A stretch of 64,000 nucleotides of DNA from Chrysophaeum taylorii (taxonomy: Eukaryota > Sar > Pelagophyceae > Pelagomonadales > Pelagomonadaceae), in NCBI GenBank assembly GCA_029834535.1, contig JAQMWT010000050.1, positions 1 to 64,000 on the forward strand, in the 5' to 3' direction. The notes under the pieces are model-generated. The model did no database searches. It was not told the origin of the DNA and was given only the letters and a program-made list of their open reading frames with translations. Each line of letters begins with the position of its first letter. The stretch's first letter is position 1. Both the position numbers and the translations under genes were made by a program. Shown piece after piece: positions 6,814 to 33,400 of the stretch.

Positions 6814-6818
6814 GAACG

Positions 6819-7949
6819 TCAGCGTGCCAGTGTCCAGAAAACCGATGGTGACGAGGTCTTCCTCGATCGTTTTTGCATCGCGCGGCGACTAGCGGTATGA
6901 TGGCATCGCCCCTTCGGATTCGCGTCGCCCGGCATCTGCATCGTCACAGTTGCCATCTCGTGCATCGCGTCTCTCGCCTCTGAATCTTCAGCGGCGCCCG
7001 CAGCAGCATCTTTGTCTGGTGGCTCTTTCTCTTTTTCGGTCGCGAACTCGGGTGGGCTCGGCACTTCGGCGGCTTCCTCATATCCAAGTTTCGCTGATGC
7101 CTCGGGGTTCTCCCATATGGCGTTCATTTCATCTTCCCACGACTCTTCCATCTACTCGTCCTTGGATCGTCGATCTCCACTTCCGATTCCAATTTGGTCT
7201 AGGCTTTTAGCGGTATCTTCGCTGCAGCTCAGCGATCGACTCCTTCTTCTTCTGGGCGGTTTCTTCAGCAGGAAGCTTTGAGCCTTCGTCCATCATTGCT
7301 GAAAGCTCCGCGTCGTCTTACTTCCGCGAACACTGTCTGACTTCATCCAGCTCGCGTATCCATCATTCGTGCCCTTCTCAGCTTCATCGACGGTTCGACT
7401 GTTCTCATCGGTCACCGGTATTGAGCTCTGACACTTCTCAATCGGAGGCGCATTCATTTCCTCCTTCGTTCCATCGGACGTTTCTTGCAATCGCTCGTCC
7501 GTCAATCGATCGTCCGTCAATTTCGGCGTTTCCGCCTTCTTCTCTTCCATCGGAGCACCTGTGGTCTGATCTGTCGTCTGATCTGTCGTGACCAAAACCG
7601 TTTCGGGGGGTGTCGCAGGAAAAGCCGACGTCGTCCCCGACGTCAACTCGGTTGGCATGACGTCGTCAACGTGATCGTCCCTGAACGACGCACACTTTGG
7701 CAAAATAGATGACACTGAATCACGACGCGCTGGTTCATCATCTTCCGAGTCTGAGTCTTCCCAGTAGCGCGGAGATTCCAAAGCCTCGATTGACCTTGCT
7801 TCCACATCATTTGCGGAAGGCCACCGAACCATCCGAGCGTTGGTGGTCGTTTCCTCCGGTTGCAAACGATGGCTGCTCGTCGCTGCGGCATCGGCAACAT
7901 CATCGGAGGGTTGGGCGGAGCGTGCCTTCGGGTATATTGCAACTCCCAA
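6819..7949 (-). pseudogene. Acidic spacer between gag and protease, element A
   Basis: Two frames (7293-7949 and 6819-7151) rich in Asp, Glu, Ser and Thr, with no recognised domain. They align with the D spacer: YPKARSAQPSDDVADAA, then SPRYWEDSDSEDD, then ELTSGTTSAFPATPPETV, then ESWEDEMNAIWE. Conservation of these short blocks between A and D shows that the frame was once continuous. The stops and frameshifts mark decay. Confidence 0.6.
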
Positions 7950-11905: not shown

Positions 11906-11964
11906 TAGAGGTGGTGTCCGTGAGCCATAAGCATTAAAGTAGTCCGTCTCTAGGAGGGTGCAAT

Positions 11965-13870: not shown

Positions 13871-14148
13871 TTGGTTCTTATGCTCCTCGAGCACGAAAGT
13901 ATTCAGGCGCTGAGACACACACCCTCACTCCACCACTGCCAACTGTGCGACGTGTGCAAAAAAACATTTTATAAACTAAAATTTCGCACACGAGACTCGT
14001 CTCGTCGCTTCACTGCTCAGCAACCCAACAACCTCACGCCCCAAAACGCACCAAAACCTTCGAGCATCCACGCCCCTTAAGCAGTCGGCCTTTGAAAACC
14101 CTGCCGACCTCTCGCTCAACAACCTTGGTCTTTATTGGTTTAACCTAC
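13871..14148. other. Intergenic between tRNA-Lys and a SINE
   Basis: No supported gene. At about 14109-14135 the plus strand reads DLSLNNLGLYW, like a fragment of a kinesin-light-chain-type TPR repeat; a similar fragment occurs at the other flank of element BC (37.7-38.1 kb). Too short for a firm call. Confidence 0.3.
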
Positions 14149-14741: not shown

Positions 14742-16393
14742 TCAGCGATTGACCTTGAAGGACTTGCGGAGATTCTCACGGCAAAGTTTCTCACGAGAAG
14801 CAAGAATGTCGTGCGCGTGGGCGGCGACTCGGTCGGGGATTCTACCACCGCTGTGGAGCGTGAAGCCGTGATGGATGACATCGATCTCGTGAGGGTCAAA
14901 GTCTGTGACGCAAGGAGTGCAGTGCGTATTGATGTTTTTCTTGAGAGTGACGCTGCGGCCTTCGGGCTTTGTATTCAGGCTTGGGTTGTCGGGTGAGCAG
15001 GTGTGACCGTGGTTTATAATGGCTGAGGTCGTCTTTTTCGCCAAGATCAACCTAGAAGTGGAGGGCGAGACGGTCGGTTTCCAAGTCGTAAGACTCGTAA
15101 ATTTCGGCGACGTGGAGCTTGGTACGCCAGGTACGATCAGAGGAATCAGGGATGCAGAAGATGACGAACTTGCCGCGCTCGTAGCCGAGGCGAGGGACGT
15201 GAGATGGCTTCGTAACGGCAGTGTCGACGATGGGAGGTACCGAAACTGGGGTGATCTCTTTGACGTGAACGACACGCTCCTCGGCACGGTCATCGAGCGT
15301 CTTGATTTTGTAAGTGACTGGCGAGATTTGCTTGGTGATCAGGAAGTGCCCGCGCCATTCAGGGCGTAACTTGTTTTGTAGCTTCGGGATGTAAAGGAGG
15401 ACTTGCGATCCTTCGGCGTACTCGACATCGACGTGGTCGGCGTCATAGAGCAGCTTCTGCGTTTGCTCGGCCTTCTGATGAGCCTCAGCTACCACGTGGG
15501 TATAAAATCGAAGGGCATTGCCTTTTTCGGCCAGAGCACCCCTGCGGGTCTTCGGCAGGATCCAATGTGGAGTGCGCGACAAGGTGCAATCCGTCGGAAG
15601 CATCGGCCGGCGGTTCATCCTGAGCATGAAAGGCGAAATCTGGGTGCCGGGGATGAACTTGCGGTTGTAGCAGAAGGACACATACCTCGCGAAAGCAGGC
15701 CAGTCGGTAATGCTGTGGCTCTGGGGGCAAGGTCGAAGGAAAGCTTTGAGGAAACGGTTGACGCGTTCAGCCGGATTAGCCTGAGCGTGATAAGGCGTCG
15801 TCGTGCTGTACCGAACGGAAAATGCTTCTAGATATTCGCGCGTCATCCCATTACAAAACTCGCTGCCGTTGTCAGTGATGACTTTGATCGGAAGATAACC
15901 TTGCAGAAGGATGTTGGTTACAAAGGACTGCAGGATCGTCTCAGCGGTCTTGTTTGGAAGGACGTCCAGTATCAGAAAATGGCTTAACGGATCGAACATA
16001 ACGAAGATGTAAGAGTGCGGTCCGAGATTGGGCAGGGGACCGAAAAGATCCATGCAGAGAGTCACAAAATCATCATCATGGTTCGGCTGCTGAAGAAGGC
16101 TATTGCGCTTAGGCTCGGGTGTCCGAGCTTTCTGACACGCGAGGCATCGGTGTATAAGTTTCGTTCGACATGTGCGGCCATCAGAAGCGCTCCATGATGG
16201 TACGGCAGGTGCTGTCGCGACCCATATGACCACCATTTACTGGGCTGTCATGATAGAGTCGAATGATCTTCTCGCGTAAAGACATCGGGGCTACGATCGT
16301 TGGAGTCTTGTCGGCGGTGACCCGAAAGAGCACACCATTGATGACTTCAATGCGACAGTTTCCATGCTTGCGGAAGGAGTGACTTTCGGTCAT
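14742..16393 (-). pseudogene. Integrase and C-terminal region of element BC
   Basis: The HHCC finger (LYHDSPVNGGHMGRDST, then CLACQKART) spans a frameshift at about 16,190. The DDE core is complete in 15052-16236: CMDLFGPLPN (first Asp), VITDNGSEF (second Asp), HAQANPAERVNRFLKA (Glu). A GPF-type region follows (LLYIPKLQNKLRPEWRG). The C-terminal extension (KFVIFCIPDSSDRTW, then 14742-15293 with CVTDFDPHEIDV) is shared with element D; it is not a clear chromodomain. Integrase inserts the cDNA copy into the genome. Stop at 14742 lies about 30 bp from the LTR. At least two frameshifts. Confidence 0.85.
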
Positions 16394-18698
16394 GCGGCGG
16401 CGAAACGACTCGCAGGTCTCATCTGTGGCTCGGCGATCTCACTCACATTCAGGTTTTGAGGGATAGCGTCGATGTAGGCTTGTCTGACGGCGGCGTCGTG
16501 GAGAGGGTGCTTCTGAGTATGCAACCGAGCCCTCTGGCGTTGTCGCGTGGCGCTCGCGACATGCAAAGTAATGGGATCGTCTGGGAGATCTTCCTCTTCT
16601 TCGGGAATGTCCGTGGTGATGAAGGACAGGGTCACGTGACAACCGGAGATCGGCATGCCATCGTCGTCATCTGTCTTGGGCAGCTCTTGCACGACCAAGT
16701 ACGTGTGGTTGAGAGACTTTCCAAACTCATCCGTCTCGATCATATGGTCGATCTGATTACGAGAGAGCCAGTCTGGGATGCTCATGCCAGGGGACTTGCC
16801 TGGTTTGTAGCCAAGCTCAGGATCGAGGTTGGCGAGGCGCATCGCCCAGCGGGCGAGCTGTCCAGACGAGAGGGTCGTGTTGCGCAGGAAAGTCAGATTG
16901 CGATGATCCGTCTCGAGAATCGAACGATGACCTTCGATGTACTGTCGGAAATGCTCCAGGGACAGGATGACCGCGAGCAGCTCGAGGCGGCGAGGCTCGT
17001 ACTGGCGCATCTCTTTAGGAACGGCTCGGCTCCAGTACTCGATGAAGCGTTCTTTTCGCGACTTGACTCCGCGCTCGTCCTCGACTTCCACCACTTGGAA
17101 AAGGTAAGCGCCTAGCCCATCCTTGGAAGCGCCAGAACGAATCTGGAATGGCAGGTCGTAGTCGTGGTGGCAAACTCCGCGAGACTCGACCAGTGCTTCT
17201 ATAATCTTGTCCCTAGCTTTCTGGCATCCGGGCGTCCACTTAAAGGGACATCATTGAGACAGAGTCGGCGCAGCGGCTCGGCGATCTTCGAGTAGTCGTT
17301 GACATATCGTCGGCAGTAGTTGGACATGCCTATGAAGAATCGGATTTGGGCGAAGTGACAGGGATAGTGCCCGGAATGGGCACCTTCCGCAAAGCGTCGA
17401 GCGTCTTGGGATTCGGCTTCGAGCCTCAAGGAGTCGGGATGTGTCCGTGGAACTCGTTCTCATCCTGGAGAAGGTGGAACTTGGCGGTGCGACCACTGTA
17501 GCCTTTCTGCACTAGGTGACACAGGACTTCAATCAAGGTCTGCAGGTGGCTGCGGATGTCGTCAAATCGCATCATGATGTCGTCGATGATGGCGATCAAA
17601 TCTCGATACGTCCAATGCGAAATGTCGTTAGCCATCTGTTTGCAAAATAGGGCCCCTGCGGTCTTTACTCCGAGTGGCAATCGCAGAAAGCTGTGCGCGC
17701 CGAGAGCGCTGATCATAGTGACAGTGTCCTGAGTGTCGGGGTCCAGGCGGAGGTTGTGATAGGCCCATCGATCGAGGTACGCCATTTCCGACCGGCGAGG
17801 AAAGCTAAAGCGTCGTCCTGTCGCATTGGGCCAGCTCTCGTCGACAAGCTGATCGTTGCGCTGTCGGAGCTCGACGGCGGCACGGAAGGCGTTGGACTTC
17901 GCTATCTCGGCTCCTTTCTTCGGCAGTATGAGGACTGGAAATCCCCAAGGCGAGTTGGCTGGGCGAATCACTCGATCTCGGCACCATTCCTCAATTTGCT
18001 TGCGTAGGCACTCGAGCTTGGTAGGCGTCAACCTGTAGGGCGTCATCTTAATCGGCTTTGGATTGAACTTTTTGAAGCGCAGCGAGACCGGAGGCGAATC
18101 AACAGGTCTCATGATGGGGTCGAAGAAGGCCCAAGCGTAACTGACGCAGTAGGTCAACATCAGCTTTGCTAGCTAACTAACTAACTTCAGACCTCTCCCG
18201 AGCATGGGAGCCAGGCCGGACCGACAGGTGCCAGTCCGGAATCACGGGCCTGTAGACGAGGGGCGCCGAAAGGTGGGTCGGCGGAGAGTGATCATCAAGC
18301 TTGTCGCCCATGCGACGAGGAGACCGCGATGTAACTGACAACCAACTCGTCGATAACCTTCCGTCTGCGCCCCCCGGCCATACCCCATCAGCTTTGCATC
18401 GTCGTCTAAGTGCGGATGGTTCGGAATTCCCAGTTCTTCGACGACTTTGTCGACCTCTTCTTTGGTCGGGATCTTAACCTTCATCGTCTCATCGTCCTTC
18501 AAGTGCTCGGGGGTCAGCGGCAGCGGTGCCCCGTCTTCGTCGCAAGGCGCATTCATCCATGGCACCGTGAATTTCTCCTCGTATTGAAGCGGACCTCGGG
18601 CTTGTTCTCGTTTTTCGGCTCCGTGATCCTTGCGTGATGAAGGGCCTTGATGAACGACGTGGTTTCGGGGGGCTCCCCTGGACAAGAGTAGTGCGACG
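16390..18698 (-). pseudogene. Reverse transcriptase and RNase H of element BC
   Basis: After a linker (KVKIPTKEEVDKVVEELGIP), RT starts with RFKKFNPKPIKMTPYRLTPT. It contains WGFPVLILPKKG and the catalytic IIDDIMM box (about 17,575-17,600), then FIGMSNYCRRYVNDYSKIAE, FIEYWSRAVPKEMRQYEPRR and ETDHRNLTFL of the RNase H domain (16390-17094). The SINE at 18170-18385 cuts between AKLM and the following RT lead. Two or more frameshifts at about 17,200-17,500. Domain order RT-RNase H-integrase defines Ty3/gypsy. The right end (18698) is the insertion point of element D. Confidence 0.87.
18170..18385 (-). mobile_element. SINE-TTAG copy inside the RT gene of element BC
   Basis: 5'-truncated copy with perfect 12-bp target duplication catcagctttgc at 18158-18169 and 18386-18397. 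Removing it and one duplication restores the local reading frame. Confidence 0.93.
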
Positions 18699-19015
18699 TG
18701 TGGCGGAAACCCCTCCTCTAGGCCCGCCCACCCCTTATCAGGGGCACCCTGCTTCGTTCTGATGATGTCAGTCTTCTCTATGACATCATCTCCTTTTCCG
18801 TGACATACGTCACCCTGATTTCTGTGATTCGAGAGTATCTTAATCATAGAGCAACAGCCGATCCTCAAGTTGTGAGGACCAGGCACGGAATTTGTTTGTG
18901 GTTGTGTGGCGAGCGAACGGCCTTCCACGTCCAGTGACTCGATCAAGGGCACGGGCGTGAGAAGCGAGACTAGATTTGAATGTGAGCCAGGTAGGCATAA
19001 TTTCCTTGCGCCACA
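18699..19015 (+). repeat. 5' LTR of element D
   Basis: 317 bp, TGTGGCGG...GCGCCACA, matching the 3' LTR at 29596-31045 once its nested insertions are removed. Differences between the two LTRs are a few percent in the right half and more in the left 90 bp, so the insertion is not recent. Minus-strand ORFs here (ending LEDRLLLYD) are shadows of LTR sequence. Confidence 0.92.
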
Positions 19016-19461: not shown

Positions 19462-20142
19462 ATGGAGGACGATGATGCTGCTGACGAGCAGATACGAGAA
19501 CCCGAACCTTCAAGCCGCCCTGAAGGTACGGACGAACGGAACGATGATGACGAAGACGATGTTGATGATGATGATGATGATGATGAATATGTTACCGAGG
19601 ATGATGACAATGAAGAGGAGCTGAGCTACAACGGCGACGAACCGTTGGAAGCGCCGCCGGCGAGTCGATCGGCAGCCCAGCCAGCACGTGCGCGAGACAC
19701 CGAAACACCGATCATATCATCAGCGAGATTTATGAAGCTCATTTACGCGAGTTGCCGAGAAAACGAACGCGCGCAAGAGAACATCCTCGAGCAGATAGCA
19801 GAAGAAAACCAGCGGCGTGAACGACTACGCCAGAAGGAGTTGGAAGAGATGCGAGAGCAAATGCGGCACGCGAACGCCCGGTCAGAGGAACTATACGAGC
19901 AAGTGCGGCTACTTACCCGCGAGAGGGACGAATTGCGTACGCCGAGTCGCTCGAGGCGAGCGAGCAGTCCAGGGTCCCGACCCGAGGAAGAGCCGCCGCC
20001 AACGCGAACACGCGCGACAGTTAGGAAACCGCGCGACCACAACGATGATTATGAGACTAAGGAGGAGACGCGCGAAACGGGAAGGTCAACGATAAGAAGT
20101 TCCTCATGGACTTCACTGACCGGTTCGCAGTGCGTTAGCTAA
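19462..20142 (+). pseudogene. Gag N-terminal region of element D
   Basis: Start chosen at MEDDDAADEQIREPE (19462), which matches the acidic start in A. A long Asp/Glu run includes the GAT microsatellite at about 19557-19590 (DVDDDDDDDEY). It is followed by a coiled coil (NILEQIAEENQRRERLRQKE, then LEEMREQMRHANARSEEL) and an Arg/Ser segment. A TAA stop at 20140-20142 breaks it from the capsid frame. Confidence 0.65.
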
Positions 20143-20229
20143 GCACGATCGCAGTAGAGATCAGCGATCAACCTCCGGATTGAAGACTGAAGCGTTTTAA
20201 TGGGCTCTTGATGGTCGCGACCAGGACCA

Positions 20230-20970
20230 GTTCGATTTAGATGCGGATGCCGTGATGAGCACGCTGGCCGACGACCATTACAGCATAGAAAAGCTGCGGT
20301 ATTTACTGCCGGTCAGTTTACGCGACACGGTCGCACCGATTTTCCGAGAGCACTTGAAGAAATACAATGAAGGGTGCAAGAATCTCGACCATCCGGCGTC
20401 TTTTTATTTACGTCGGGACGTCGACAATGAGGAGTACGGTTCAGTGGTACGACGCCTACGCCGACCGAACAGAGAGTACTGCCTCAAAATTTTAAATTAC
20501 CTCCGATCGAGTTGCCCTTTGCCTATGACGACAGAGGAGTTACTACGAAAACTTCAGAGTACGACCCAGGCGTCCGTTCCGAAAAGGCCTGGGGAACGCC
20601 ATGTGCACACTTATTGCGCCGAATTCCAGAGCGAGGCGATGGCCTGCTGTTCTGTGGCACATCGAGACCTTGATGATGTTGAGATCATCTCTTATTTGAT
20701 ACGTGGACTGGAGTCCAGCGACTTACGATCCCGCGTGCGGACCATGCGCAGCGGGCACCCGACGACGTACGATACATTTACGTCGACGTTGTCACTGATT
20801 ACGCGGCTCGAGAACGATTACGCGACCGCGTTGGAAGAGCGGAACGACCGCAACTCGAAGAACCCGTCGAACGGGAAAACGCAGAAACCGCCGCAGGGAC
20901 GCGGAGGCCGAGCGTTGGCCTCGGGGCCGAAAGACAAGAAAACGAAATATGAATCGCTGCGATTAGACGA
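20230..20970 (+). pseudogene. Gag capsid region of element D
   Basis: MMSTLADDHYSIEKLRYLLP (Met 20252) through LESSDLRSRVRTMRSGHP and TRLENDYATALEERND. All-helical and colinear with the A capsid. Expected role is assembly of the virus-like particle in the cytoplasm (family knowledge). The frame is open across this part, then shifts at about 20,950 before the zinc finger. Confidence 0.65.
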
Positions 20971-21567
20971 GAACCCGAAAAGTGGTACGAGCTCACATGC
21001 AAGAATTGTGGATTTTCCCTCTCGACCCACGACAAGGATGAACATGGGAGCCGCGTTATTTGCAACCGCGAACCCGATGATTATTATGTTGCGATGTGCA
21101 AGTTCATCGAAAACGATAAGAAACCTCCCTCTCGAGGCAGATGGGAGAGTCGACAGAAGAATGATTCCCAGTCGCGCGATGATGGCAGTTCGAATGCCAC
21201 CCTCGGTTCGAGCGCCGCTCAGGATATTCAGAGTAGGCTCAACGACATAGGCACGCAGCTGACCACGGTCATGGATTCAATGAAGCACAGGAAAGATGGA
21301 CACGGCCGATCGTCTTCTACACGACCAGGCCGTCGAGACAGCCGGAGTCCCCGACGCCGCGACAGGAGCCGCAGTCACAGCTCACGTTCGCGCCGACGGA
21401 AAGAAAGCCGGAGCCCTAGCAGACATTCGCGCCGACGCCGGCGACGAAGATCTCGCGACCGCGATTCGGAAGGTGGACGGTACCGAGAAGATTCAGGACA
21501 TTCGTCTGCCACGTTCGCGTCTACGACCCCCTGCGGGCAACAGTTACCATTAGGAGTGATGATGTAC
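20955..21567 (+). pseudogene. Nucleocapsid-like region of element D
   Basis: The finger TCKNCGFSLSTHDKDEHGSR then VIC (CX2C-X6-H-X10-C) at about 20,990-21,065 is followed by a Ser/Asp linker with a helix (AQDIQSRLNDIGTQLTTVMD) and an Arg/Ser-rich tail (SRSPRRRDRSRSHSSRSRRR). The frame runs into the SINE at VMMY and resumes after it. Confidence 0.65.
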
Positions 21568-21858
21568 TCCCGGCGTAGGTTGGCACCTATTCGCCTCCCG
21601 GGCGGGCCGGTTGGCAGCCGGAACGCTCGCAGTGGGACGGGGTATGGCCGGGGGGCGCAGACGGAAGGTCATCGACGAGTTGGTTGTCAGTCACATCGCG
21701 CTCTCCTCGTCGCATGTCGACAAGCTTGATGATCACTCTCCGCCGACCCACCTTTCGGCGCCCCTCGTCTACAGGCCCGTGATTCCGGACTGGCTCCTGT
21801 CGGTCCGGCCTGGCTCCCATGCTCGGGAGAGGTCTGAAGTTAGTTAGTTAGTTAGTTG
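21568..21858 (+). mobile_element. SINE-TTAG copy inside gag of element D
   Basis: 5'-truncated copy starting tcccggcgtaggttggcacc, with TTAG tail. The perfect 12-bp duplication gtgatgatgtac is at 21556-21567 and 21859-21870, encoding VMMY on both sides in the same frame. Confidence 0.95.
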
Positions 21859-22701
21859 GTGATGATGTACCCGGACACGGACACCCGCTCCGACGACGCA
21901 GCCGACGCTTCTGCCGCGGCCGCACTCGAAGATCTTGCTCGTCCGCCGCTGGACGAGCCACCCAACGAAGTGCTGACCGATCGTCGGTCTTTGGCACGGA
22001 TTTACGAGGAGATGTCGGGCGATGAACCCGAAGAGTCGAGCGATGAACTCGACGCTCCACGATACTGGGAAGGCGATTTGGACTTGGAAGACGAAGAAGC
22101 CGTACCTTGTGCCCCAGTGTCCTCGATTAGGTTACTTGACGAGTCGTCCAAGGACGACCCATCGTCTGTTGTTGACGAGGAAGCCCTCGACGCTATCGGC
22201 TTATCTTTGGATCCCCCCAATGACATTTGGCGACCGGACTGGCAGTGAGCCAGACATGGATTCTGCAGCGATAGCACGGATGATCATTCAACCGTTGAGA
22301 CGATGACCATTGCGAGCGATGCAGACGATGATCTTACGATAGAGTTGACGTCGGGGACGACGCCATCTTTTCCTGCGGACCCCCCCGAAACGGTTTCGGT
22401 TACGACGGATCGAGCCACGGATACGCCGCCGGAAGAAAAGGATACGAAATCGCATAATGCGTCGGACGAGAAGCTACGTGCACGGTCCGAAGACGAAAGG
22501 GTCGCTTCTCCAATTGAGCAATGCCCGGATTTATCTCCGCCAGGAGAAGAGAGCCGTGACGACATTGCGGGAGTCGAGCCGAACCCAACCGAAGAAGTTG
22601 GATTTAAGAAGAAGATTAGCAGCGTTCTCGATTTGGACGAAGATGAGCCGACGTGGAACCTGCAGGATTGGTGGACGAGAACTCGGAACTTCTTGCTATA
22701 G
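21859..22701 (+). pseudogene. Acidic spacer of element D
   Basis: Frames 21856-22248 and 22303-22701: Asp/Glu/Ser-rich, colinear with the A spacer (APRYWEGDLDLEDEE; ELTSGTTPSFPADPPETV). Ends WTRTRNFLL. No recognised domain. The frame is broken twice by indels. A short tail (ESTDAFWEDEMNELWE) leads to the protease-like part. Confidence 0.6.
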
Positions 22702-22785
22702 AAGCCACCAGAACGACCGCTCAGCTACGGAATCGAAGCTGCAGCCGACACGGAACCGATCGGCACCGACCGTGACGATCAACAG

Positions 22786-24667
22786 ATGACGAACGAATCT
22801 ACGGATGCATTCTGGGAAGACGAAATGAACGAGTTATGGGAGAGGTCCTTTGCTTCAGAGAACGCCGAAGATCGGGACCCCCTACCAGCATTGATTCCCT
22901 CCGAGATTGTCATGGAGGAAGAGCGGGGGGCACCAGATAAAGAGGCTGCCGCGAGTGTTGCGTCGATGCCGACGACGACGATTGATACGAGAGCCCAAGC
23001 CGCGGTGTCGATGCCCAACCCCGGCGACGAGCGAGTCAGAGCCCAATGTTCTCACGCTTCGTTAACGCCGCGGGATGGCAAGACTATCGAGGAAGATTTG
23101 GTTACCCTCGTCGGTGTTGATGGAATCGCAGATGTTTCCTATATCTGCCGCGAAAAGGTCCGAAAATTGGCCAAAGATAAGTTGATTTTCGATGAAGGCG
23201 AGCTTCCGATTAAGCGCGAGCTGTACGGATCGGGGTTGAATACGAAAACGATCTATCGTTGGATCGCAATCCGGGTTGCCCTCGCCGACGACGTCGCTGC
23301 CCCCATTGTCGCTATTGTGGCCGACAACTAACTAACTTCAGACCTCTCCCGAGCATGGGAGCCAGGCCGGACCGACAGGAGCCAGTCCGGAATCACGGGC
23401 CTGTAGACGAGGGGCGCCGAAAGGTGGGTCGGCGGAGAGTGATCATCAAGCTTGTCGACATGCGACGAGGAGAGCGCGATGTGACTGACAACCAACTCGT
23501 CGATAACCTTCCGTCTGCGCCCCCCGGCCATACCCCGTCCCACTGCGAACGTTCCGGCTGCCAACCGGCCCGCCAGAGAGGCGAATAGGTGCCAACCTAC
23601 GCCGGGAGGGCGTATGCCCTCGCAAGGCTCATCAGGATTCATGAGGCACCATCCTCAATCGCAACCGTGCGGTCAGCGGTCAGGGTAAGGGCGACACCAA
23701 TTATCTTTTCCTGTTGGGAGGGCGCGATATCCGAGTTTTAGGCGCCGTCGTGGACTACCCCCACGATCGGATCTGTTTCTATCGAACCCAAGTCGTCTAC
23801 GGGCGCAAGAAGATTAAAGTCAAGGGTGAACGAGTCGATGCACCCATTGTGACATTTCGATCTGTTTGCGATCGAGATCCGATAACCGTGCCGATATACA
23901 ATCATCAGCACGACGCCTTTCGGTAGAGTCTCGACCTGGTCAAGACTCGAGTTTACGCTCGTCTGAGCACGATTAAAGATCTCCACAGCCCGCCGCCGGA
24001 ACGAGCGGTAGCCTTGACGACGCGGGGACATTCTACGACCGAACTCTCCCCAGCTCCGGGAAAGCAGGAAGTCGTTGCTTACGCTGCGCGCGCGCTGCAA
24101 ATCGAGCCCGGTCGGACTTACAATTTACCGGTTATTTTGTCGAAGCCTATGGAAAAAGGACAGGTCTTCGTCGCTACGTTTGCTGAAAACGAGCAGTTGG
24201 GAATTGTCGAAGGGATGTGTTCTTCTTGCGAAGAGCACGACAAGTCATCTGCTCGCGTGGCTGTTACGTCCACACAAGAAGTGCCGACGGCCGTCACTCA
24301 AGGCGAGGTTCTCGCAATTGGCGATATCGTTCGGTACGAAGATGAGTTGAACGTTTCTACGATCAACGAACTTACGAAAGAATGTGAAGAAGGTTACGAC
24401 AAGGGGAGCCTTTCCTTCACCGTTTCCGTCGCTAGAAACTTGACGCGCTGCGACGAATCCCCCCCGCCGATGTTGCTGAGCACGGCGCAGAAAGACGCTC
24501 CAACTGCTGCTTTGGACGCGTCTTCCCCCAAACGACCGAAGCGAGACGACGATTTCGCTCGACGGTCTGAAGAAGATGAGAAAAAGTGCCGCGAGATCAC
24601 CGAGCGGAAATCTGCCGCCGATACGAAAAGGTTCATTGGCTACCGATCACTTATCGCAAGGTGGTGA
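22786..24667 (+). pseudogene. Protease-like and dUTPase-like region of element D, split by a SINE
   Basis: GVDGIADVSYICREKVRKLA is the active-site strand with DGI in place of DSG. The SINE at 23328-23690 interrupts at VAIVAD; the frame resumes at NYLFLLGGRDIRVLGAVVDY (LLG block). A TAG stop lies at about 23,925. The following 24014-24667 frame carries the beta region (IEPGRTYNLPVIL, then GEVLAIGDIV) and a charged linker (KRPKRDDDFARRSEEDEKK) that leads, after a frameshift, into the DNMT. The beta region resembles the dUTPase-like fold of other gypsy pol proteins (inference). Confidence 0.6.
23328..23690 (-). mobile_element. SINE-TTAG copy, full length, in the protease region of D
   Basis: Tail ctaactaacttcag at the left; 5' end (cttaccctgaccgctgaccg on the minus strand) at the right. 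An imperfect target duplication (gccgacaac / gcgacacc, at 23320-23327 and 23691-23698) fits the rejoined codons GCC GAC ACC AAT. Confidence 0.88.
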
Positions 24668-25880
24668 TGCTGTTCAGTGGAGCCGGAGGCAGCACTTTCG
24701 GTCTCCAACGAGCCAACGAGATGTGTGGGACGTCGTTTCGAGTCGTTTTAGCACTCGATTCGTCGGACACCGCCAACAAGATCCACCGCAAGAATTTCCC
24801 GAACATTCCTGTGGTGCAGCACGCGCTTTGTGGTCGCTATGTTACAAGCTTACGGTTGATCGAATCTTATTTACCTTACGCGGAATGGTCGTCGTCGATG
24901 TGCATCGCGTCGCCGCCCTGCGTACACTCCGCTCTGTGCAACTTGACTTCCAGAGATGTTGGCAAGGGTGTCACCGCCACCCACTGGACGATGAAATTAT
25001 GCAAGATGGCTGGTTTCTTCACGTGGCTGATAGAGCAGGAGGCTTCGATTATTTCTTATGTTGCACGTTTACACCCTTACGTGTACGCCGTCAACTTTTG
25101 CGACGTAACGCCCAGTTTGATGAGCTGTCGCGTGCGGTTGTTGGTCTCCAGCCACCTGCTCCATTTGCGCGCAGTTCCCAAGACTTGCAAGAATATGCAA
25201 CAAGAGTTCGCCGCTGCGCTTGGCTACGCAGACGAACGGCATTTACTTCAGATGAAGAACTTAGGGTCATCACGAGCCGCGACGGACGCAGCTTATACCG
25301 TTACGCGAGTCCCGCTTCGCGTAGGACCGCGACGTTCCGATTACCGATCTTTGAATTTGAAAATGACTTCGGAGTTGCTGACGATGCCCCTTGATTTTGA
25401 TTGGGCCGGCTTCTCCAGGACGACTTCGTTGAAACACTTGGCGTCTGTCGTGCCACCAGACACGATGGCTTTATTCGTACTCGATCTGTACAACTCTGTG
25501 ACCAAGGATTTTCACTTGAGCGGCGAGGCTTTGCGTCCGCGTTGAGTCCTGCAGACAGACCGCTTGATTATTATTTGCAACTCGACGAAACCACCCTTCG
25601 TCACGTACAAGTTCCGCTGTTAAACACGCGCACACGTGTCGTAAGATGGGTGTCGACTGATGATCTCCAAGATCGCACCAAATGGAAACCTCCAGAAGTG
25701 CCTTTGCTTCCGCCTGCAACAGATGAGCCGGGGACGTCGCATGCTTCTTCTGCTGCCCCCCCCCCCCAACAACCAAATTTGGACGTTCCGCCAGATCCTG
25801 AGCGAGATCGGGAACCAAAGATTAAGAGCGAGCCGAGCGTTCGTGTCAATGGCGAGAAGATCAACAAAAGCCGGAAGTGA
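24586..25880 (+). pseudogene. DNMT domain of element D (most complete copy in the window)
   Basis: The 319-aa frame 24586-25545 contains ITYRKVVMLFSGAGGSTFGL (motif I, about residues 28-38), VVLALDSSDTANKIHRKNFP (motif II-III), CIASPPCVHSALCN (motif IV, Cys about 112), FTWLIEQEAS (motif VI, Glu about 150), SLMSCRVRLLVSS (motif VIII, about 177-189) and a roughly 130-residue tail (LGYADERHLLQMKN; VTRVPLRVGPRRSD; PPDTMALFVLDL). After one frameshift the protein continues to 25880 (TTLRHVQVPLLNTRTRVVRW). It is fused in the gag-protease polyprotein and followed by ORF2 about 15 bp later. Predicted to methylate cytosine C5 with SAM; a role in methylating the element's own cDNA or host DNA is inference. 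Confidence 0.87.
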
Positions 25881-25884
25881 GACT

Positions 25885-27480
25885 AAAATACGAGTAAAAG
25901 TTCGATGTGCCATGGAAAGATGCGCCGCGCGATGCTGATGGTGCACCGCTGCCGCAAACTCCCGAGCATGTCAAGGATAATGAGGCTATGAAAGTGAAAA
26001 TTCCTACGAAGGAAGAAGTTGACAAGGTTGTTCAGGAGCTTGGAATTCCTGACAATCCGCACTTAGATGACGATGCGAAGCTGATGCTCCGTCACTGTGT
26101 GCAATATTTTTGAGCCTTTTTCGACCCGATTATGAGACCTGTGGACTCGCCACCTGTGTCTCTACGATTCAAAGACGCAAATCCGCGACCGATTAAGATG
26201 ACGCCCTATCGATTGACGCCTGCGAAGCTCGATTGTCTCCGCAAGCAGATCACTGAGTGGTGTCGGGATGGAGTCATTCGCCCGGCCAACTCACCTTGGG
26301 GCTTTCCTGTGTTGATGCTTCCCAAGAAAGGAGCTGAGATTGGAACGTCAAATGCGCTCCGCGCTGAAGTTGACTTACGTCAGCTCAACGATCAATTGGA
26401 CAAAGACAGTTGGCCGAACATTTGACAAGACGATGCTTTAGATTTTCTCGCCATGCGACGCTGGCGGACATGCATTGATATTAGATGAGGATATCACAAC
26501 CTTCGTCTGGACCCGGCAGTGCAAGACGCTGTCACGATGGTTAGCCCACTTGGCGCTCATAGTTTCTTGCGATTACCTCTGGATGTGAAGACGGCCGGAG
26601 CTCTTTTCTGCAAGCAGATGGCGAGCGACCTTTCGAAGTGGATGTATCGAGACTTGGTTGCGTTTGTTGACGATATCATGATGGGATACGACGATCTTCA
26701 TCGTCATTTACAAGTTTTGATCGAAGTTATGTGTCATTTGGCACAGAGAGGGTACAGCGGTCGAACCGCGAAGTTCCACCTTCTCAAGGATGATCTAGAA
26801 TTTCTGGGACACATTTCTACCCCAGAGGGCTTGAAGCCGAATCCGAAGATTCTGGAAGCACAGCAGAAGATGCCGATTCCAGGTACTTTACCGAATACTT
26901 CCCCGAAGACCCAGATACGCTCTTTCATCGGCATGAGTAATTATTGCCGGCGATATGTGAAAGGCTACTCGAAGATCGCGGAACCGCTAAGACGATTATG
27001 CCTCGAAGGCGTAAAGTTCGAATGGACGCCCGAGTATCAAAAGGCTTGGGATACGATTATTGAAGCTTTGGTTGATTCCCGAGGAATCTACCACCCCGAT
27101 TATTATCTGCCTTTTCAGATCCGATCCGACGCTTCCAAGGATGGACTTGGAGCATATCTCTCTCAGATTGTCGGAGTCAAGGACAAGGCAGGAATAGTGA
27201 CTCGAGAAGAACGAGTTATTGAATACTGGAGCCGAGCCGTGCCGAAGGAGATGCGCAATTACGAACCCCGTCGGCTAGAGCTGCTGGCAGTTGTCCTTTC
27301 TCTGGAGCATTTTTGAGCCTATATCGAAGGGCACCGGACTGTTTTGGAGACCGATCACCGAAATTTGACGTTTTTACGTAAAACGACGCACTCGCCTGGA
27401 CAGCTTGCTCGTTGGGCGATGCGCCTCGCCAACTTTGATCCCGAACTTGGTTACAAGCCGAGAAAGTCACCGGGAATGAG
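25885..27480 (+). pseudogene. Reverse transcriptase and RNase H of element D
   Basis: Begins KFDVPWKDAPRDADG, with the helical linker KVKIPTKEEVDKVVQELGIP, then RT: RPIKMTPYRLTPAKLDCLRK, WGFPVLMLPKKG, and the catalytic AFVDDIMMGYDD box (about 26,655-26,695). Then come FIGMSNYCRRYVKGYSKIAE and RNase H (RSDASKDGLGAYLS, IEYWSRAVPKEM, ETDHRNLTFLRK). In-frame stops occur at about 26,111, 26,422, 26,485 and 27,314; comparison with BC suggests that some arose from TGG or CGA codons changing to TGA. Copies element RNA into DNA in the particle. Confidence 0.88.
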
Positions 27481-29595
27481 TATCCCTGACTGTCTCTCCC
27501 GCAATCCGATAGATCACGTCATTCAGACTGACGAGTTTGGAGAACCTTTGAACCACGCTTATTTGGTGTTCCAAGAGCTTCCCCGACCTGTTGAGGACCA
27601 AGGAATTCTTACCTCCGGCTGTCACTTCATATTGTCGTTTGTCACGACCGAGCTGCCGGAAGACGAGGAAGAAGACCCCGAAAAAGATCCGATGAAATTG
27701 GCTACGTCTCACGCTACGAGACAACGTCGGAAGCACCGCGTGCGCGATGAGCCGCAGGTCTTCAAGGACGCAGCCGCCTACAAGGATTACATTGATAAAA
27801 TTCCCGATAATATGACGCTCGATGAGATCGCGCGTGAGCAAGAAGCTGATGCTACTTGCGAGGATATTCGCTATCGGATGGCCCAAGGTCATACGTCGCG
27901 ACGTTACAGAGCTAACGAACGATATGAAGTTGTGAAAGACATTCTTTACCGCATTTCTGCTGATTTGCACCCGATGATTGTGGCCCCTGCCACGTTGCGC
28001 AGGCGAATCATTCGACTTCACCATGACACTGCGGTTAACGATGGTCATATGGGACGTCACAGTACCGTCCAGGCTATCCAGGAACGATTTTGGTGGCCCC
28101 ACATGTCGAACGAAGTCGGAGTCTTCATTGCTGAATGTTTAGTCTGTCAGAAAGCTCGTACGCCTGAGCCGAAACGAGCTGGACTCTTGCAGCAGCCTGT
28201 CTACGATGGTGATGGCGCTGTTCTATGCATGGATTTATTTGGACCTTTGCCCAGTGCTGGTCCCGAGACGTATCTTCTAGTGTTTTCCGATCCGTTCTCG
28301 TACTTCTTAATTTTGGATGTTTTGAACGATAAGACTGCTGAATCCATTCTCGAGTCTTTTGTCGTTAACATCTTCCTCGAGGGCTACTTGCCCCAGATGA
28401 TTCGTACCGACAACGGTAAAGAGTTCGTGAACAAGTTGATGCGCGAGTTTTGCCATCTCTTCAACACACGATACCAAACCACGATTCCTTATCATGCCCA
28501 GTCGAACCCGGCTGAGCGTGTAAACCGATATATCAAGGCCTTCCGTCGTGCTTGCCTTCAGGGCCGGAACATCACGGATTGGCCCGACTCTGCCCATTAT
28601 ATTGCGATTTGTTATAACCGCAAGTTTATTCCAGGCACGCAGATTTCTCCCTTTATGCTGCGCCTGAACCGTCAGCCGATGCTGCCTACTGACTGCACGC
28701 TTATGGATTTCGAGGTCTGAAGTTAGTTAGTTAGGATTTCGATACCCGACTGTTGCCGAAGACTCGCTCTGATGCAGTCGCTGAAACTCGTGAACGATTG
28801 AAGTATTATACGAAGATCGTCCACGAAGCTCGTGATAAGGCTTTGAAGAAACAACGATTGGCTTATAACGCCGATCATGTCGATGTCGAATACAAGGAAG
28901 GATCGCATGTTTTGCTTTACATTCCTTTCCTTCAGAACAAGCTTCGACCGGAATGGCGAGGACCGTTTATTATCAAGGAACGCCTTTCCCCGGTCACCTA
29001 TAGGATTGAGTTTCTCGACCCTCCGCCCGAAGAACGACGTGCTCATGTTAGTCAGATCACGCCTGTGATGGTTCCTCCGATCGTTGATCAAGCCATCCGT
29101 AAACCCGAAGAAACCTTCCGTGATGATTATCAGCACGGTAAGTTTGTTGTTTTCCGGGTTCCTGACCGGAAGCGCTCTGATTGGCGCAAGAAGATCTATG
29201 TTGCTGAAGTTTACTAGCCTTACGATTACCAGAATGATCGTGTTGCTCTGCATTTCTATTCCGATTTGGGTCCGAACGATGATGTCGCTTATTTCAAGCC
29301 GACCTATCACCTTTCAAACCGCAAGCTCAAGCCTGAGTACAAGGACGTTGACGGTCGCAGTTTCACCGACAAGTCCAAGATCTCATCCAGCATAACTCCT
29401 TGTGTCACGGATTTCGCTCCGCACGAGATTGATGTGTTGGTCCCCAAGTTTATTTTGCGCAGTGGTCGCGTTCCCCCTAGCCGATCGTCACCCGCGTTTA
29501 CAAGAAGATTCATGCTCGAGATGCTCGTAAGGCGAAGCCGCGCTCCTCGCGTTAGCCGCTCGCTGGGGCAGCTCGTATTCTCACCAAGTAAGTCC
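27481..29595 (+). pseudogene. Integrase and C-terminal extension of element D
   Basis: HHCC finger: LHHDTAVNDGHMGRHST, then CLVCQKART. DDE core: CMDLFGPLPS, MIRTDNGKEF, HAQSNPAERVNRYIKA. The frame is interrupted at TLMDF by a 20-bp SINE scrap (28714-28733) and resumes with TRLLPKTRSDAVAETRER. Next are LLYIPFLQNKLRPEWRGPFI (GPF-type region) and a C-terminal extension (FVVFRVPDRKRSDW; CVTDFAPHEIDVL) ending just before the 3' LTR. A TAG at about 29,215 replaces Glu of BC (VAEIYES). All catalytic residues are present, but the frame is broken. Confidence 0.88.
28714..28733 (+). mobile_element. Minimal SINE insertion: 20 bp of 3' tail only
   Basis: The insert ggtctgaagttagttagtta lies between 9-bp duplications ggatttcga (28705-28713 and 28734-28742). 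The insert is exactly the SINE 3' end. Removing it restores the integrase frame. Confidence 0.9.
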
Positions 29596-29692
29596 TGTGG
29601 CGGAAACTCCCGCCTCCTGAGGCTTACCCCTCCTCTAGGGCCCCTTATCAGGTGCACCCCTACTCCGTTCTGATGATGTCCGTTTTCTCCAT

Positions 29693-29887
29693 GACTAACT
29701 AACCAACTGAAACTAACTTCAGACCTCTCCCAAGCATGGGAGCCAGGCCGGACCGACAGGAGACAGTCCGGAATCACGGGCCTGTAGACGAGGAGCGCCG
29801 AAAGGTCGGTCGGCGGAGAGTGACCATCAAGCTTGTCGCCATGCGACGAGGAGACCGCGATGTGACTGACAACCAGCTCGTCGATAA
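29693..29887 (-). mobile_element. SINE-TTAG copy in the 3' LTR of D
   Basis: The tail is imperfect (taactaaccaactgaaactaa). The 5' end is truncated at cgataa on the plus strand. Target duplication ccatgac (29686-29692) versus ccatg (29888-29892), the second copy being cut by the Helitron-like insertion. This gives the order LTR, then SINE, then Helitron-like unit. Confidence 0.82.
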
Positions 29888-29892
29888 CCATG

Positions 29893-30809
29893 GCAAGTGC
29901 AGGCCAGTAAGTTCACCTAGTCCCAATCTCTAACGCTAGTAAGTTCACCTGGTCCCAGTAAGTTCACATGGTCAGTTAGTTCACTTAGTCCCAATCTCTA
30001 ACCCGGCGCAAACCCACTCGCGCTCACATCCACTCTCCTTCGAGCTCGTCGCTCTCACCCCCGCCAATCTAAGCTGCTTTGATCCGCACACGCCGCTAAC
30101 CTTCGCGTTTACTCTTAAAACCCCAGTAAGTTCACCTGGTCCCAGTAAGTTCACCTGGTCACTAAGTTCACCTAGTCCGAATCTCAAACCGCGGTAAGTT
30201 CACCTGGTCCCAGTAAGTTCACCTACAGTGCGCGTGTAGACGCCGGGAGGGGGCTTATCGGTATTGCGCAGCACGTGTGGGGTAGGGTGGAGTCGCCGAC
30301 CCACAGGAGGATATCCTCGGGGTTGCCGACTCGCCGACTCGACAGAGAGCCACTTAGAGCTGGACGTGGCAGAAGACGGGCTTGGGCAAGAGGACACCAA
30401 CTTTGCGGGGCGTCTGCCCCTGGCTCTTGTTGATCGTTTGGCGTAGGCGGGGCTTAAGGGATACAAATTTGGTGGGAGGAGCCTCGGTGACACGACACGA
30501 TTGATGATGTATCGGGTACCGTTGCAGTGGCCGTGCGACGGGTCGAGGTTGCGAAGACCTTAAGCTCGCGCTCAAAGTCAGCATGCTGTTGGTTGTCAGG
30601 GAGTTGACAACTCGACTGTAAAGAGCGAGGCGCCGTCTTCCGACCCAACCTAGTCGGCCGAAAAGAACTCCGAAGCCTCGTCTTTGGGAAAGGCCGCGGT
30701 CATGCGCGCGTTGTCAGCATCGACAACATTGTTTCGACGGGGCGTGAGAATGGCGCGCTGAAAGTGCCGCCGCGGGTCGTGGAAATAGTCTGCATCGATT
30801 AGTAGTAAG
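29893..30809 (-). mobile_element. Single Helitron-like unit with helicase remnant
   Basis: Shares both ends (gcaagtgcaggccagtaag at the left, cgattagtagtaag at the right) and most of its body with the tandem units at 60,301-64,000. The left part has repeated aagttcacctggtcccagt motifs. The minus strand encodes helicase pieces: [15 protein letters not shown] and [20 protein letters not shown], then FCHVQL. Presence at an unrelated site shows that the unit moves as a discrete element. Confidence 0.75.
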
Positions 30810-31045
30810 GACATCATCTTCCTTTTCCATGACATACGTCACCCTGATTTCTGTGATTCGAGAGTATCTTAATCATAAAGCAACAGCCGATCCTCAAGTT
30901 GTGAGGACCAGGCACGGAAGTTGTTTGTGGTTGTGTGGCGAGCGAACGGCCTTCCACGTCCAGTGACTCGATCAAGAGCACGGGCGTGAGCGGCGAGCCT
31001 AGATTTGAAGGTGAGCCAGGTAGGCATAATTTCCCTCACGCCACA

Positions 31046-32422
31046 CGACGTACCCGGCGCGGGCTTGTCCGGTGGAAGGCGAGGTTTGGGCCATGGCCAT
31101 TTGGTTGGGTCGGAGAGTTCGGAGGTCGAAATGAACGAGACGACGTATGTGTCGACATGGATGGCGGGTTGCTCCGGGTCCAGATCGTCTGAAGGGAACG
31201 TGAGGATGACATCCACCGGTATGTCGACGCGGCAGAGGGCGTTGTCGCGGACCGGACCCCTGTTCCGCCGAGATGGTGGCGCGTGGTTATGGAATTGACA
31301 CGCGAGCATGGCGAGCGTGTCAGGCGGGATCACGGATGCGAGGTGCTTGAAGCGATCCGTGGTTGTCAGTGAGCCAACTCACGTCCGCGGGCATGGTCAG
31401 GAGAGCTGCAGTCCTTTCCACGTTGAGCGGCTTGGTGTCGGAGCGATGCGGTCCGACGCGTAATGGCTGACGCGTCTGCGTGCACACGGGGTCTGTGGGG
31501 AAACGACTATTCCCATAGTGATTGATCTGGAGAAGATCTTTTTCATCCTGGAACCCGAGCTGAGCGCCGAAGGCTTCTTGCAGGTTGGGGCAGGTCTTGT
31601 CGACTTCGGGAACCGGAGAGGATGGCTAGAGATCGACATCCGTCTGCGGTCGCTCATTAGCGTTGAGGTAATTGCGTAGAAGTTGGTGACGTACACGTAG
31701 GGATACAGCTGGGCTACTTCAGGCATGAGCGAGGGCTCTTGCTCGACGAGCCAGCGTCGGACTCCACACAACATGAAGAATTTGACGGTCCAGTTGGTCG
31801 CGGCGGCGCCTTTACTAACGTCGCGTCGGGTCAGATTGGCGTGGGACGAGTGGACGCACGGCGGCTTGCCCACGAAGAACGCACCTTTCCATCTGTAGCG
31901 GTCCAGGTAGCTCTCGACTAGCCCCATCGTGGCCTTGTAGTTTCCACAAAGCGTTTGTTGAACGGCCTATATGTCGGGGAAGTTTGCGCGATGGACTTGG
32001 AGTGCAATATCCGAAGAGTCGATGACGAGAGCGACGCGGAAGGACGTGCCACACTGCTCGTTGCAGCGCTGGATGCCGAGAGTGCCGCCACCGACGCCGC
32101 CAAATAACAAAACTACTTCGGTGTAGGCGATCGGGATCCGTTCGAATAGGCTGTGGCGGCGCAGGATGTCCGCGCGGGTTTCTTCTCGAGAGGGGCGACG
32201 GCAGATCGTCGAGCCGTCATCCGCGTGCGTGGACGCGTCGCCGCTTGGCGCTTCTTCGTCGGGCTCGCCATCAGCTGAGGTCTTGGCGAGCAGCAGCGGT
32301 CGCTCGCTGCCGGCGCGTGCTGCGTTGCTGGCGATCGATACGGAAAATGATGCGGAGCCGGGGGTCTCGGTCGATTCACCAGAAGGGTCGTCGACGAGTG
32401 CTCGTGCTCGTGCTACTGTCAA
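31046..32422 (-). pseudogene. DNMT domain of element BC
   Basis: In 31967-32422: IAYTEVVLLFGGVGGGTLGI (motif I), VALVIDSSDIALQVHRANFP (motif II-III). A TAG stop near 31,967 is followed by 31397-31927: GKPPCVHSSHANLTRRD (motif IV Cys present), RRWLVEQEPS (motif VI Glu), TLMSDRRRMSISS (motif VIII). Later frames (to 31046) carry the tail: MIPPDTLAMLACQ, DTYVVSFISTSELSDPTKW. Clearly homologous to the A and D DNMTs but diverged, so it represents a second subfamily. The left edge at 31046 is where D is inserted. Confidence 0.82.
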
Positions 32423-33400
32423 TTATTCGTCGCACTTGACGATATCACCCTGTGCAATGTGGTGGACGCGAACCAGGGTCGTAGGAATTCCGTGTCGGTG
32501 GACGAAAGGGCGACGATAGCGGACTGCGGATCGGCGTGATCGAGGGTGGAGCAGGCGCCAGCCACGACGCCGACGTGTTCGGTGCACGACGCGTTGGAGA
32601 TAAATGCGAGTCCCGGTTCAGTCGGGTGCGACAGAGTCACAGGCATGTTGCAGGTCCGGCCGGGTTGCACTAGCACCGTTTGCTTCGTGTATGCGCACAC
32701 GGGTTCTGTGGAGACCCGCTTCATGTGGTCTGGTAGGTCGGGAACTTCGCCGATCGTCACGCTCGCGAGCGCGCGGACGGGCGGCGGGTGGTGCAGATCT
32801 TGGATTGACCATTCCGGCTGCAGGATACGCTTATGTCCATTGGCTTCGGCCTCGGCGATCGCAGGGTGGTGGCGGGCGTAAATCGGTGCTATGATGGGCC
32901 CATCCTCGTAAAGTGCACGGTGAGCAATCGTGGGGGGGGGGGACTCGACGCCCGCGGTACGTGATCGTGCGTCGCTGATACACCGCAGTGGAAGAGGATG
33001 CGGTCTTTGGGATAGTCCACGACGGCTCCGAGGGCTTCGATGTCGCGGCAGCCCAACAGAAAGAGATTGTTCGTGTCTGCGACGATGCATCGATGGGCAC
33101 CGTCATGTCGTCGGAGATTGGCTGGCGCATCACCAACATTTGGATATGTGGGTGGTGTTCTTGCCAGAACCGTAGAGCTTTCGGCTGAACGGCAGTTCGC
33201 CGCGGTCTAGGACCATCTGCTCCCTGTCGAAGGCGGCGCCTAGATCTCGACATACGTAGGTCACGTCAGCCATGCCGCCCATGCCAACAGCTGTGCTGGA
33301 CGATCGTCCGCTGACCGGGGAGAAGACATGAGTTGGCATGAAGGTCAGCCGCGCAGGGTCGAGGCAGCATATCGTTTTAAGTCCCCTTTCGACTAGGGCT
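32419..33400 (-). pseudogene. Protease-like and beta region of element BC
   Basis: VGMGGMADVTYVCRD (about 33,240-33,290) aligns with GIDGMADVSYICRE of A; here the presumed catalytic Asp is Gly. Then ELPFSRKLYGSGKNTTHI is shared with A and D. After frameshifts, 32419-33090 contains APIYARHHPAIAEAE and the beta region VLVQPGRTCNMPVTL. Order and spacing match A and D. Broken by at least two frameshifts. Confidence 0.55.

What the first reader, a model, noticed from the sequence alone, without database searches (positions are those of the whole stretch)
24586..25880. Ty3/gypsy retrotransposons that carry their own cytosine DNA methyltransferase
Element D has a DNMT domain with motifs I (LFSGAGGS), IV (PPC), VI (IEQ) and VIII (CRVR) in the polyprotein between protease and reverse transcriptase. 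Established: retrotransposons with captured DNMTs have been reported in dinoflagellates and charophyte algae. Inference: this is a similar capture, perhaps in another lineage, letting the element methylate its own cDNA or alter host silencing. The full LTR-to-LTR context with target duplication makes the association certain for this copy.
Basis: partly seen in the sequence, partly recalled or inferred. Interest (0 to 1): 0.95.

Follow-up and report, generated by a model that had tools for sequence, protein, structure and literature searches.

The report
Algal retrotransposons carrying DNA-methylation enzyme domain
A family of jumping genes in a golden-brown marine alga carries, inside its own machinery, a domain related to the enzymes that put methyl marks on DNA; this extends a rare phenomenon, so far described mainly in dinoflagellates and a relative of land plants, to a third lineage.

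Summary
ORF 24580-25545 encodes a C5-cytosine-methyltransferase-like domain in the pol region of a Ty3/gypsy element. Its N-terminal half (motif I to PPC, up to motif VI) is securely homologous to cytosine methyltransferases: PF00145 22.1 bits against a cut-off of 22, PHROG 116 E 1.7e-7, profile score 116.8 against at most 25.5 in 50 shuffled controls. The C-terminal half is not proven by sequence, and structure prediction failed (pLDDT 32.6). The true LTRs are 18699-19015 and 29596-31045, target duplication CGACG; the repeat pair nearest the domain is an interspersed repeat. The host is the pelagophyte Chrysophaeum taylorii. Of 124 scored genomic matches, 101 lack stops; dN/dS between subfamilies is 0.062. 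Element D sits inside a second DNMT-bearing gypsy element; a third copy lies at 4.5-6.9 kb. A Ty1/copia family carries another DNMT domain. DNMT-bearing retrotransposons are a known kind (PMC5890265); the lineage, the divergent domain and the Copia counterpart look new in my searches. Self-methylation of cDNA is inferred; there is no CpG-deamination footprint.

The parts
18694..18698 (+). target-site duplication CGACG, left copy of element D
18699..19015 (+). 5' LTR of element D (TGTGGCG...CGCCACA, 317 bp)
19504..23324 (+). upstream coding part of element D, collinear with sister copies; interrupted by an inserted repeat at about 21568-21858
   Evidence: 65-88% nucleotide identity
23107..23324 (+). 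protease-like region, first part (VGVDGIADVSYIC), by eye; start approximate
   Evidence: no Pfam match
23325..23691 (-). interspersed repeat inserted in element D, absent from sister copies; not an LTR (orientation relative to other copies only)
24580..25545 (+). open frame of the DNMT-like domain of element D: motif I about 24670-24691, PPC 24913-24921, EQE 25033-25041, CRVR 25126-25137, SVVPP about 25444-25458
   Evidence: positions computed from residue numbers
25546..26113 (+). linker between DNMT and RT
26114..27316 (+). reverse transcriptase and start of RNase H, in two frames (broken)
27317..28720 (+). RNase H end, H2C2 zinc finger, integrase core
28735..29217 (+). integrase C-terminal part (sub-threshold Integrase_p58_C and SH3_Tf2-1 matches)
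29596..31045 (+). 3' LTR of element D, split by an insertion of about 1.1 kb (about 29696-30809)
31046..31050 (+). target-site duplication CGACG, right copy
31051..32422 (-). DNMT pieces of element E, the gypsy element into which D is inserted (PPC, VEQE kept; frames broken)
32889..33927 (-). protease-like pieces of element E (GMGGMADVTYVC), by eye
   Evidence: no Pfam match
15052..18693 (-). RT, RNase H and integrase of element E, on the other side of the D insertion
4532..6887 (-). third gypsy copy (F) with DNMT (open piece 4842-5681) and protease-like region, truncated

Best explanation
Element D is an old, broken copy of a Ty3/gypsy family of Chrysophaeum taylorii whose pol polyprotein carries a captured C5-cytosine methyltransferase domain between a protease-like region and RT. 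Shown: homology of the SAM-binding and catalytic half, position next to RT/RNase H/integrase, LTRs with target duplication, many stop-free copies, and low dN/dS of the domain. Inferred: the domain is made within Gag-Pol, packaged with RT and integrase, and methylates cytosines in the element's double-stranded cDNA before or at integration, so that a new copy resembles host DNA already handled by the host's DNMT5-like and SRA proteins.
For: PF00145, PHROG and profile evidence; nearest annotated tblastn matches are three DNA (cytosine) methyltransferases (E 2e-3 to 1e-2). Domain order with RT, RNase H, integrase. Of 124 scored matches 101 have no stop (counted from its table; 23 with stops). In 22 distinct copies FSG[AV]GG, PPC and RVR are in 22, EQE in 21. 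Median dN/dS 0.062 over 62 pairs with dS >= 0.3 (RT 0.029 over 35 pairs); close pairs 0.164 over 168 (RT 0.165 over 119). Two gypsy lineages, D and E, share the arrangement. Host has a DNMT5-like gene and an SRA protein. Published retrotransposon DNMTs can methylate CG de novo (PMC5890265, abstract and discussion).
Against: C-terminal half (motifs VIII-X, target recognition) not recognisable above controls; motif VI is EQE, not ENV; motif X lacks GN (by eye). Structure model without confidence. CpG observed/expected is 1.33 in D and singleton C-to-T changes are not enriched at CpG (DNMT 10 of 146 against 22 of 300 sites; RT 7 of 65 against 16 of 189; linker 2 of 33 against 6 of 75). Thirteen of the 22 copies were chosen by me mostly for long open frames and seven are top-scoring hits, which biases conservation upward. 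In PMC5890265 the LINE-borne DNMT did not methylate DNA in yeast.
Confidence: 0.55

Rival explanations
1. The domain descends from a methyltransferase but no longer methylates; it serves as a structural or nucleic-acid-binding module of the polyprotein.
For: Divergent C-terminal half, EQE for ENV, no recognisable target-recognition domain; no CpG footprint.
Against: PPC and RVR in 22 of 22, FSG[AV]GG in 22 of 22 and EQE in 21 of 22 sampled copies; E keeps PPC and VEQE at 49.4% identity.
Confidence: 0.2
2. It is an RNA cytosine methyltransferase acting on the element's RNA or its tRNA primer.
For: The best PDB sequence matches are DNMT2 enzymes, not significant (E 0.08); the N-terminal half matches a DNMT2 profile (score 77.2); no CpG footprint.
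Against: The bacterial DNA-methyltransferase profile scores higher over more columns (100.2 over 103 against 77.2 over 75); the tree does not place the domain.
Confidence: 0.15
3. It acts in trans on host chromatin, at insertion sites or genome-wide, rather than on the element's cDNA.
For: Many copies; a host DNMT5-like gene and SRA protein that could maintain marks.
Against: No direct evidence; no CpG-deamination sign in the DNA examined (CpG observed/expected 1.00-1.53).
Confidence: 0.08
4. Chance or assembly adjacency of a host methyltransferase piece and a retrotransposon.
For: Borderline Pfam score for this one copy; 54 of 108 RT matches had no listed DNMT match upstream.
Against: 54 of 108 RT matches do have one at the expected place; 4 of 4 unpaired loci that I read also hold DNMT sequence, two of them truncated; copies exist in which DNMT, RT and integrase share one open frame.
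Confidence: 0.02

Closest known systems
KnitGypsy-Dnmt3, Klebsormidium nitens (PMC5890265; abstract, passages, sections 9 and 11 seen)
   Same: Gypsy element with a C5-DNMT in the Pol polyprotein; purifying selection (Ka/Ks < 0.2 there)
   Different: There the repeats are arranged as in DIRS elements (figure legend); here ordinary LTRs with a 5-bp target duplication. There Dnmt3-related; here the class is unresolved.
SymbioDIRS-Dnmt3 and SymbioLINE-Dnmt, Symbiodinium (PMC5890265)
   Same: Retrotransposon DNMTs in hundreds of copies; DIRS version active on CG
   Different: DIRS (tyrosine recombinase) and LINE backbones; here a rve integrase and LTRs
Bacterial cytosine methyltransferases of the P0003 group
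   Same: Motif I to PPC, including PPC..HS.L.N...RD; 33% identity over 104 columns
   Different: Stand-alone enzymes with full motifs VIII-X; the C-terminal half here is not alignable above controls
DIRS elements with Dam-like adenine methyltransferases (mentioned in PMC5890265 and PMC6338049, passages)
   Same: DNA methyltransferase in a retrotransposon polyprotein
   Different: Adenine enzymes, structurally unrelated to cytosine DNMTs according to PMC5890265

Membership tests
C5-cytosine methyltransferase (PF00145) | PF00145 match at or over the curated cut-off | tested here: met
   22.1 bits against 22 for the window copy, L030 22.2, L031 22.8; but L022 19.2 inside its long frame
C5-cytosine methyltransferase (PF00145) | motif I (FxGxGG) and catalytic PPC | tested here: met
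   22 of 22 sampled copies; profile alignment with controls. Motif names recalled.
C5-cytosine methyltransferase (PF00145) | motif VI ENV | tested here: inconclusive
   EQE aligned on I-E-N; Glu kept, Asn and Val not
C5-cytosine methyltransferase (PF00145) | motifs VIII, IX, X and target recognition domain | tested here: inconclusive
   C-terminal half 21.4 against controls with top five 19.7-35.0; best alignment collinear with IX-X
C5-cytosine methyltransferase (PF00145) | class I methyltransferase fold | tested here: inconclusive
   pLDDT 32.6, pTM 0.23
C5-cytosine methyltransferase (PF00145) | methylation activity | not testable with these tools
   needs an assay
Ty3/gypsy LTR retrotransposon | RT - RNase H - integrase order with RVT_1-type RT | tested here: met
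   (RVT_1 over cut-off in L022; 24.9 bits against 29.6 in the window copy)
Ty3/gypsy LTR retrotransposon | paired LTRs TG...CA and short target duplication | tested here: met
   18699-19015 and 29596-31045, TSD CGACG
Ty3/gypsy LTR retrotransposon | aspartic protease | tested here: inconclusive
   no Pfam match; DGMADVSYIC in 12 loci where DTGA would be expected, by eye
KnitGypsy-Dnmt3 | DNMT in the Pol ORF of a Gypsy element | tested here: met
   (L022)
KnitGypsy-Dnmt3 | DIRS-like repeat arrangement | tested here: not met
   ordinary LTR pair
KnitGypsy-Dnmt3 | DNMT of the Dnmt3 class | not tested
   no DNMT3 reference in hand; tree held only bacterial, phage, DNMT2 and one DNMT5-like sequence and did not place the domain
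SymbioDIRS-Dnmt3 | tyrosine recombinase | tested here: not met
   rve integrase instead; no PF00589 match listed for the frames scanned

The most novel reading that the evidence does not exclude
In this alga the searches showed only DNMT2-like and DNMT5-like host enzymes, and DNMT5 is known in a yeast as maintenance-only (recalled, no call). The retrotransposon-borne DNMTs, present in two LTR superfamilies, could be the cell's source of new 5mC: they write marks on cDNA and insertion sites, and the host DNMT5/SRA machinery keeps them. Host DNMTs split by introns could have been missed, so the premise itself is open.
Probability: 0.1. Interest if true: 0.9.

Novelty: new variant of a known kind. 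Interest (0 to 1): 0.62.

Why it matters
Retrotransposons with cytosine methyltransferases were described in two lineages. A third, with over a hundred matches, a very divergent domain under purifying selection, and a second DNMT domain in Ty1/copia elements of the same genome, suggests that carrying a DNMT is a repeated strategy rather than an accident. The alga has been grown and sequenced (PMC10366177), so whether new copies are methylated, and where new 5mC comes from in a host with a DNMT5-type enzyme, could be tested directly.

Tried and rejected
Nearest repeats as LTRs: rejected, sister copies run through both places without them. Gypsy and Copia DNMTs as one family: no detectable profile similarity (probability 0.45 of 100), but both profiles are shallow, so an old common origin is not excluded. 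Origin from the host DNMT5-like gene: no similarity with the same shallow profile. Tree (33 sequences): gypsy and copia domains on very long branches, not placed. Homologous proteins: none of 4679 candidates for the single sequence, one of 8000 for the alignment at E 0.028 (P0003); that search admits only proteins 0.55-1.75 times the query length, so polyproteins could not appear and absence elsewhere is not shown. PDB by sequence: DNMT2 at E 0.08 beside unrelated GGA1 chains at E 0.23-1.6. Viral contigs: 15 stretches matched a pattern, none a relative. DNMT-less sister elements: 54 of 108 RT matches lacked a listed DNMT match, but 4 of 4 such loci read (of 54) hold DNMT sequence; the lists score only part of the candidates. 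Linker as neutral control for dN/dS (medians 1.00 and 0.77) is weak, since ungapped placement may misalign it. The first dN/dS run counted four copies twice; one search replaces it. LTR identity of the C5 copies as an age: dropped, they lack target duplications at their own ends. DNMT1 by its RFD domain: no match, but no control genome rang either. My first guess of the host, Perkinsus, was wrong.

Full report
OBSERVATION. The open frame 24580-25545 reads VVMLFSGAGGS ... SPPCVHSALCNLTSRD ... WLIEQE ... SCRVRLLV ... SLKHLASVVPPD. Pfam gives PF00145 just over its cut-off, on the motif I part alone (22.1 against 22 bits, E 1.2e-4). All 16 members of the family alignment A1 match PF00145 at E <= 0.01, best 4.4e-6; L022, scanned within its long frame, scores 19.2, under the cut-off. 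PHROG 116 carries the match to PPC at E 1.7e-7. tblastn finds one phage and two plasmid records at E 0.1 or better, all annotated as DNA (cytosine) methyltransferases (E 4e-3, 2e-3, 1e-2). One database protein matched the A1 profile weakly (P0003, E 0.028); its 80 kept bacterial and archaeal relatives, of which 75 passed my filter for canonical motifs, gave with it a profile of 76. With the pieces of element E added, the gypsy profile aligns to it over 132 columns, motif I to VI, score 116.8; 50 column-shuffled controls reach at most 25.5. Without E the score is 102.3, 30 controls at most 24.9. The part after motif VI scores 21.4, inside the controls (60, top five 19.7 to 35.0), though its best alignment is collinear with motifs IX and X. 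AlphaFold2 gave pLDDT 32.6. So the catalytic half is a cytosine-methyltransferase homologue and the rest is unproven.

ANATOMY. Sister copies L021, L022, L026 and L027 are collinear with the window on both sides of 23325-23691 and lack that stretch; L026 and L027 also run through the 29.7-30.8 kb stretch without it. The repeats nearest the DNMT are thus insertions of a repeat found several times in the window in both orientations. The LTRs are 18699-19015 and 29596-31045, the latter split by about 1.1 kb, with ends TGTGGCG and CGCCACA and the target duplication CGACG. RT, RNase H and integrase follow the DNMT. Upstream lies a protease-like region by eye, with DGMADVSYIC in 12 loci where DTGA would be expected; Pfam finds nothing there. 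Element D is broken: its frames are in pieces and its RT stretch has two stops. Its LTRs are 94.9% identical over 236 bases and 80.5% over 77. D lies inside a second gypsy element, E, on the minus strand, in the linker between E's DNMT and E's RT. E's DNMT pieces are 49.4% identical to D over 308 residues; its RT is 74% identical to L022. A third, truncated copy with DNMT lies at 4532-6887, minus strand. The shared order in D and E suggests that the capture is older than their split (inference).

GENOME. A protein on contig C634 (102313 bases) is 100% identical over 360 aa to CTAYLR_008533 of Chrysophaeum taylorii, whose longest contig is listed with the same length. That genome is reported as 71 Mbp on 702 contigs (PMC10366177, passages); here 70.8 Mb on 697. 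The species is a pelagophyte stramenopile; 84 light-harvesting matches fit an alga. The window's DNMT has 124 scored matches (of 1023 candidates), 77-94% identical apart from itself; 101 have no stop in the match and 23 do (counted from the table). Some contigs look like duplicates of each other, so counts may be inflated. In 22 distinct copies (2 from the window, 7 top hits, 13 chosen mostly for long frames) FSG[AV]GG, PPC and RVR are in 22 and EQE in 21. Median dN/dS of the DNMT is 0.062 over 62 pairs with dS >= 0.3 and 0.164 over 168 closer pairs; RT 0.029 over 35 and 0.165 over 119. Copies exist in which DNMT, RT and integrase share one open frame of about 3060 aa. Of 108 scored RT matches 54 have a listed DNMT match at the expected place upstream. 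I read 4 of the other 54: each holds DNMT sequence, two truncated at the front.

SECOND FAMILY. Of 57 PF00145 matches in the genome, 2 are host-type genes: C634 (DNMT2-like) and C621 (DNMT plus SNF2, as in DNMT5). Of the rest, 47 coincide with matches of a Ty1/copia-borne DNMT (118 matches, 111 of 668 candidates scored; overlap), one more (C64, L005) aligns with it, and 7 were not checked. In L036 the order is DNMT, rve (below its cut-off), RVT_2 in one frame. This domain keeps the Cys and ENV but has LPC for PPC and a degenerate motif I. Gypsy and Copia domains show no detectable direct similarity.

MECHANISM. The most likely working is that the domain is made within Gag-Pol, travels with RT and integrase and methylates the cDNA before or at integration. 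Presence, position, conservation and selection are shown; activity, substrate and benefit are inferred by analogy with PMC5890265 (abstract, sections 9 and 11 seen), where the DIRS-borne DNMT methylated CG de novo but the LINE-borne one did not methylate DNA in yeast. Against strong inherited CpG methylation here: CpG observed/expected is 1.33 in D, and singleton C-to-T changes are not enriched at CpG: DNMT 10 of 146 against 22 of 300 sites, RT 7 of 65 against 16 of 189, linker 2 of 33 against 6 of 75. The host has one DNMT5-like gene, plus a weak 53-residue match elsewhere, and one SRA match. DNMT1-RFD was not found, but no control genome rang either. A passage of PMC9998398 links DNMT5 with linker methylation in the pelagophyte Aureococcus.

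KNOWN OR NEW. PMC5890265 reports LINE, DIRS and a Klebsormidium Gypsy with DNMT. PMC12344493 (section 5 and passages) repeats this and calls the LTR element Copia. PMC6338049 (passages) speaks of DAM- and DCM-encoding Ty3/Gypsy and DIRS elements in lineages that include stramenopiles; pelagophytes are not named in its text (0 occurrences). Paper searches in the open-licence library showed no report of such elements in a pelagophyte; subscription papers and preprints were not searched, and I read listings, not all papers. I rate it a new variant of a known kind.

Noticed in passing
L034-L037, L039 and 118 matches in G000: Ty1/copia elements of the same genome carry another C5-methyltransferase-like domain upstream of integrase, with ENV and the catalytic Cys but LPC for PPC and a degenerate motif I.
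   Followed up: partly
window 23107-23324, 33130-33927; L021-L023, L025-L033: The protease-like region upstream of the DNMT reads DGMADVSYIC (12 loci; DGIA in D, GGMA in E) where a retroviral protease would have DTGA or DSGA; Pfam recognises nothing. A protease with an unusual active-site motif, or a misjudged region.
   Followed up: partly
window 11964-12190, 12548-12908, 14145-14508, 18169-18389, 21567-21857, 23325-23691, 29699-29889: A repeat of about 185-370 bp occurs at least seven times in both orientations, inserted inside the gypsy elements; its class is unknown.
   Followed up: partly
G000:C5, two long gypsy copies: LTR pairs are 100% and 98.2% identical, but neither copy has a target duplication at its own ends; AGGAG stands at the two outer sides of the pair, as if the copies had recombined or been duplicated together.
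   Followed up: partly
G000 contigs C10/C297 and C25/C521: Same-identity matches at nearly the same coordinates on two contigs suggest duplicated or haplotype contigs, which inflates copy counts.
   Followed up: no
window 22445-22600: 156 bases of element D that four sister copies lack at the same place.
   Followed up: no
window 57791-60325 (-): Intron-free host-like gene with an ion-transport domain (PF00520), GC 0.67, unlike the retroelement region.
   Followed up: no
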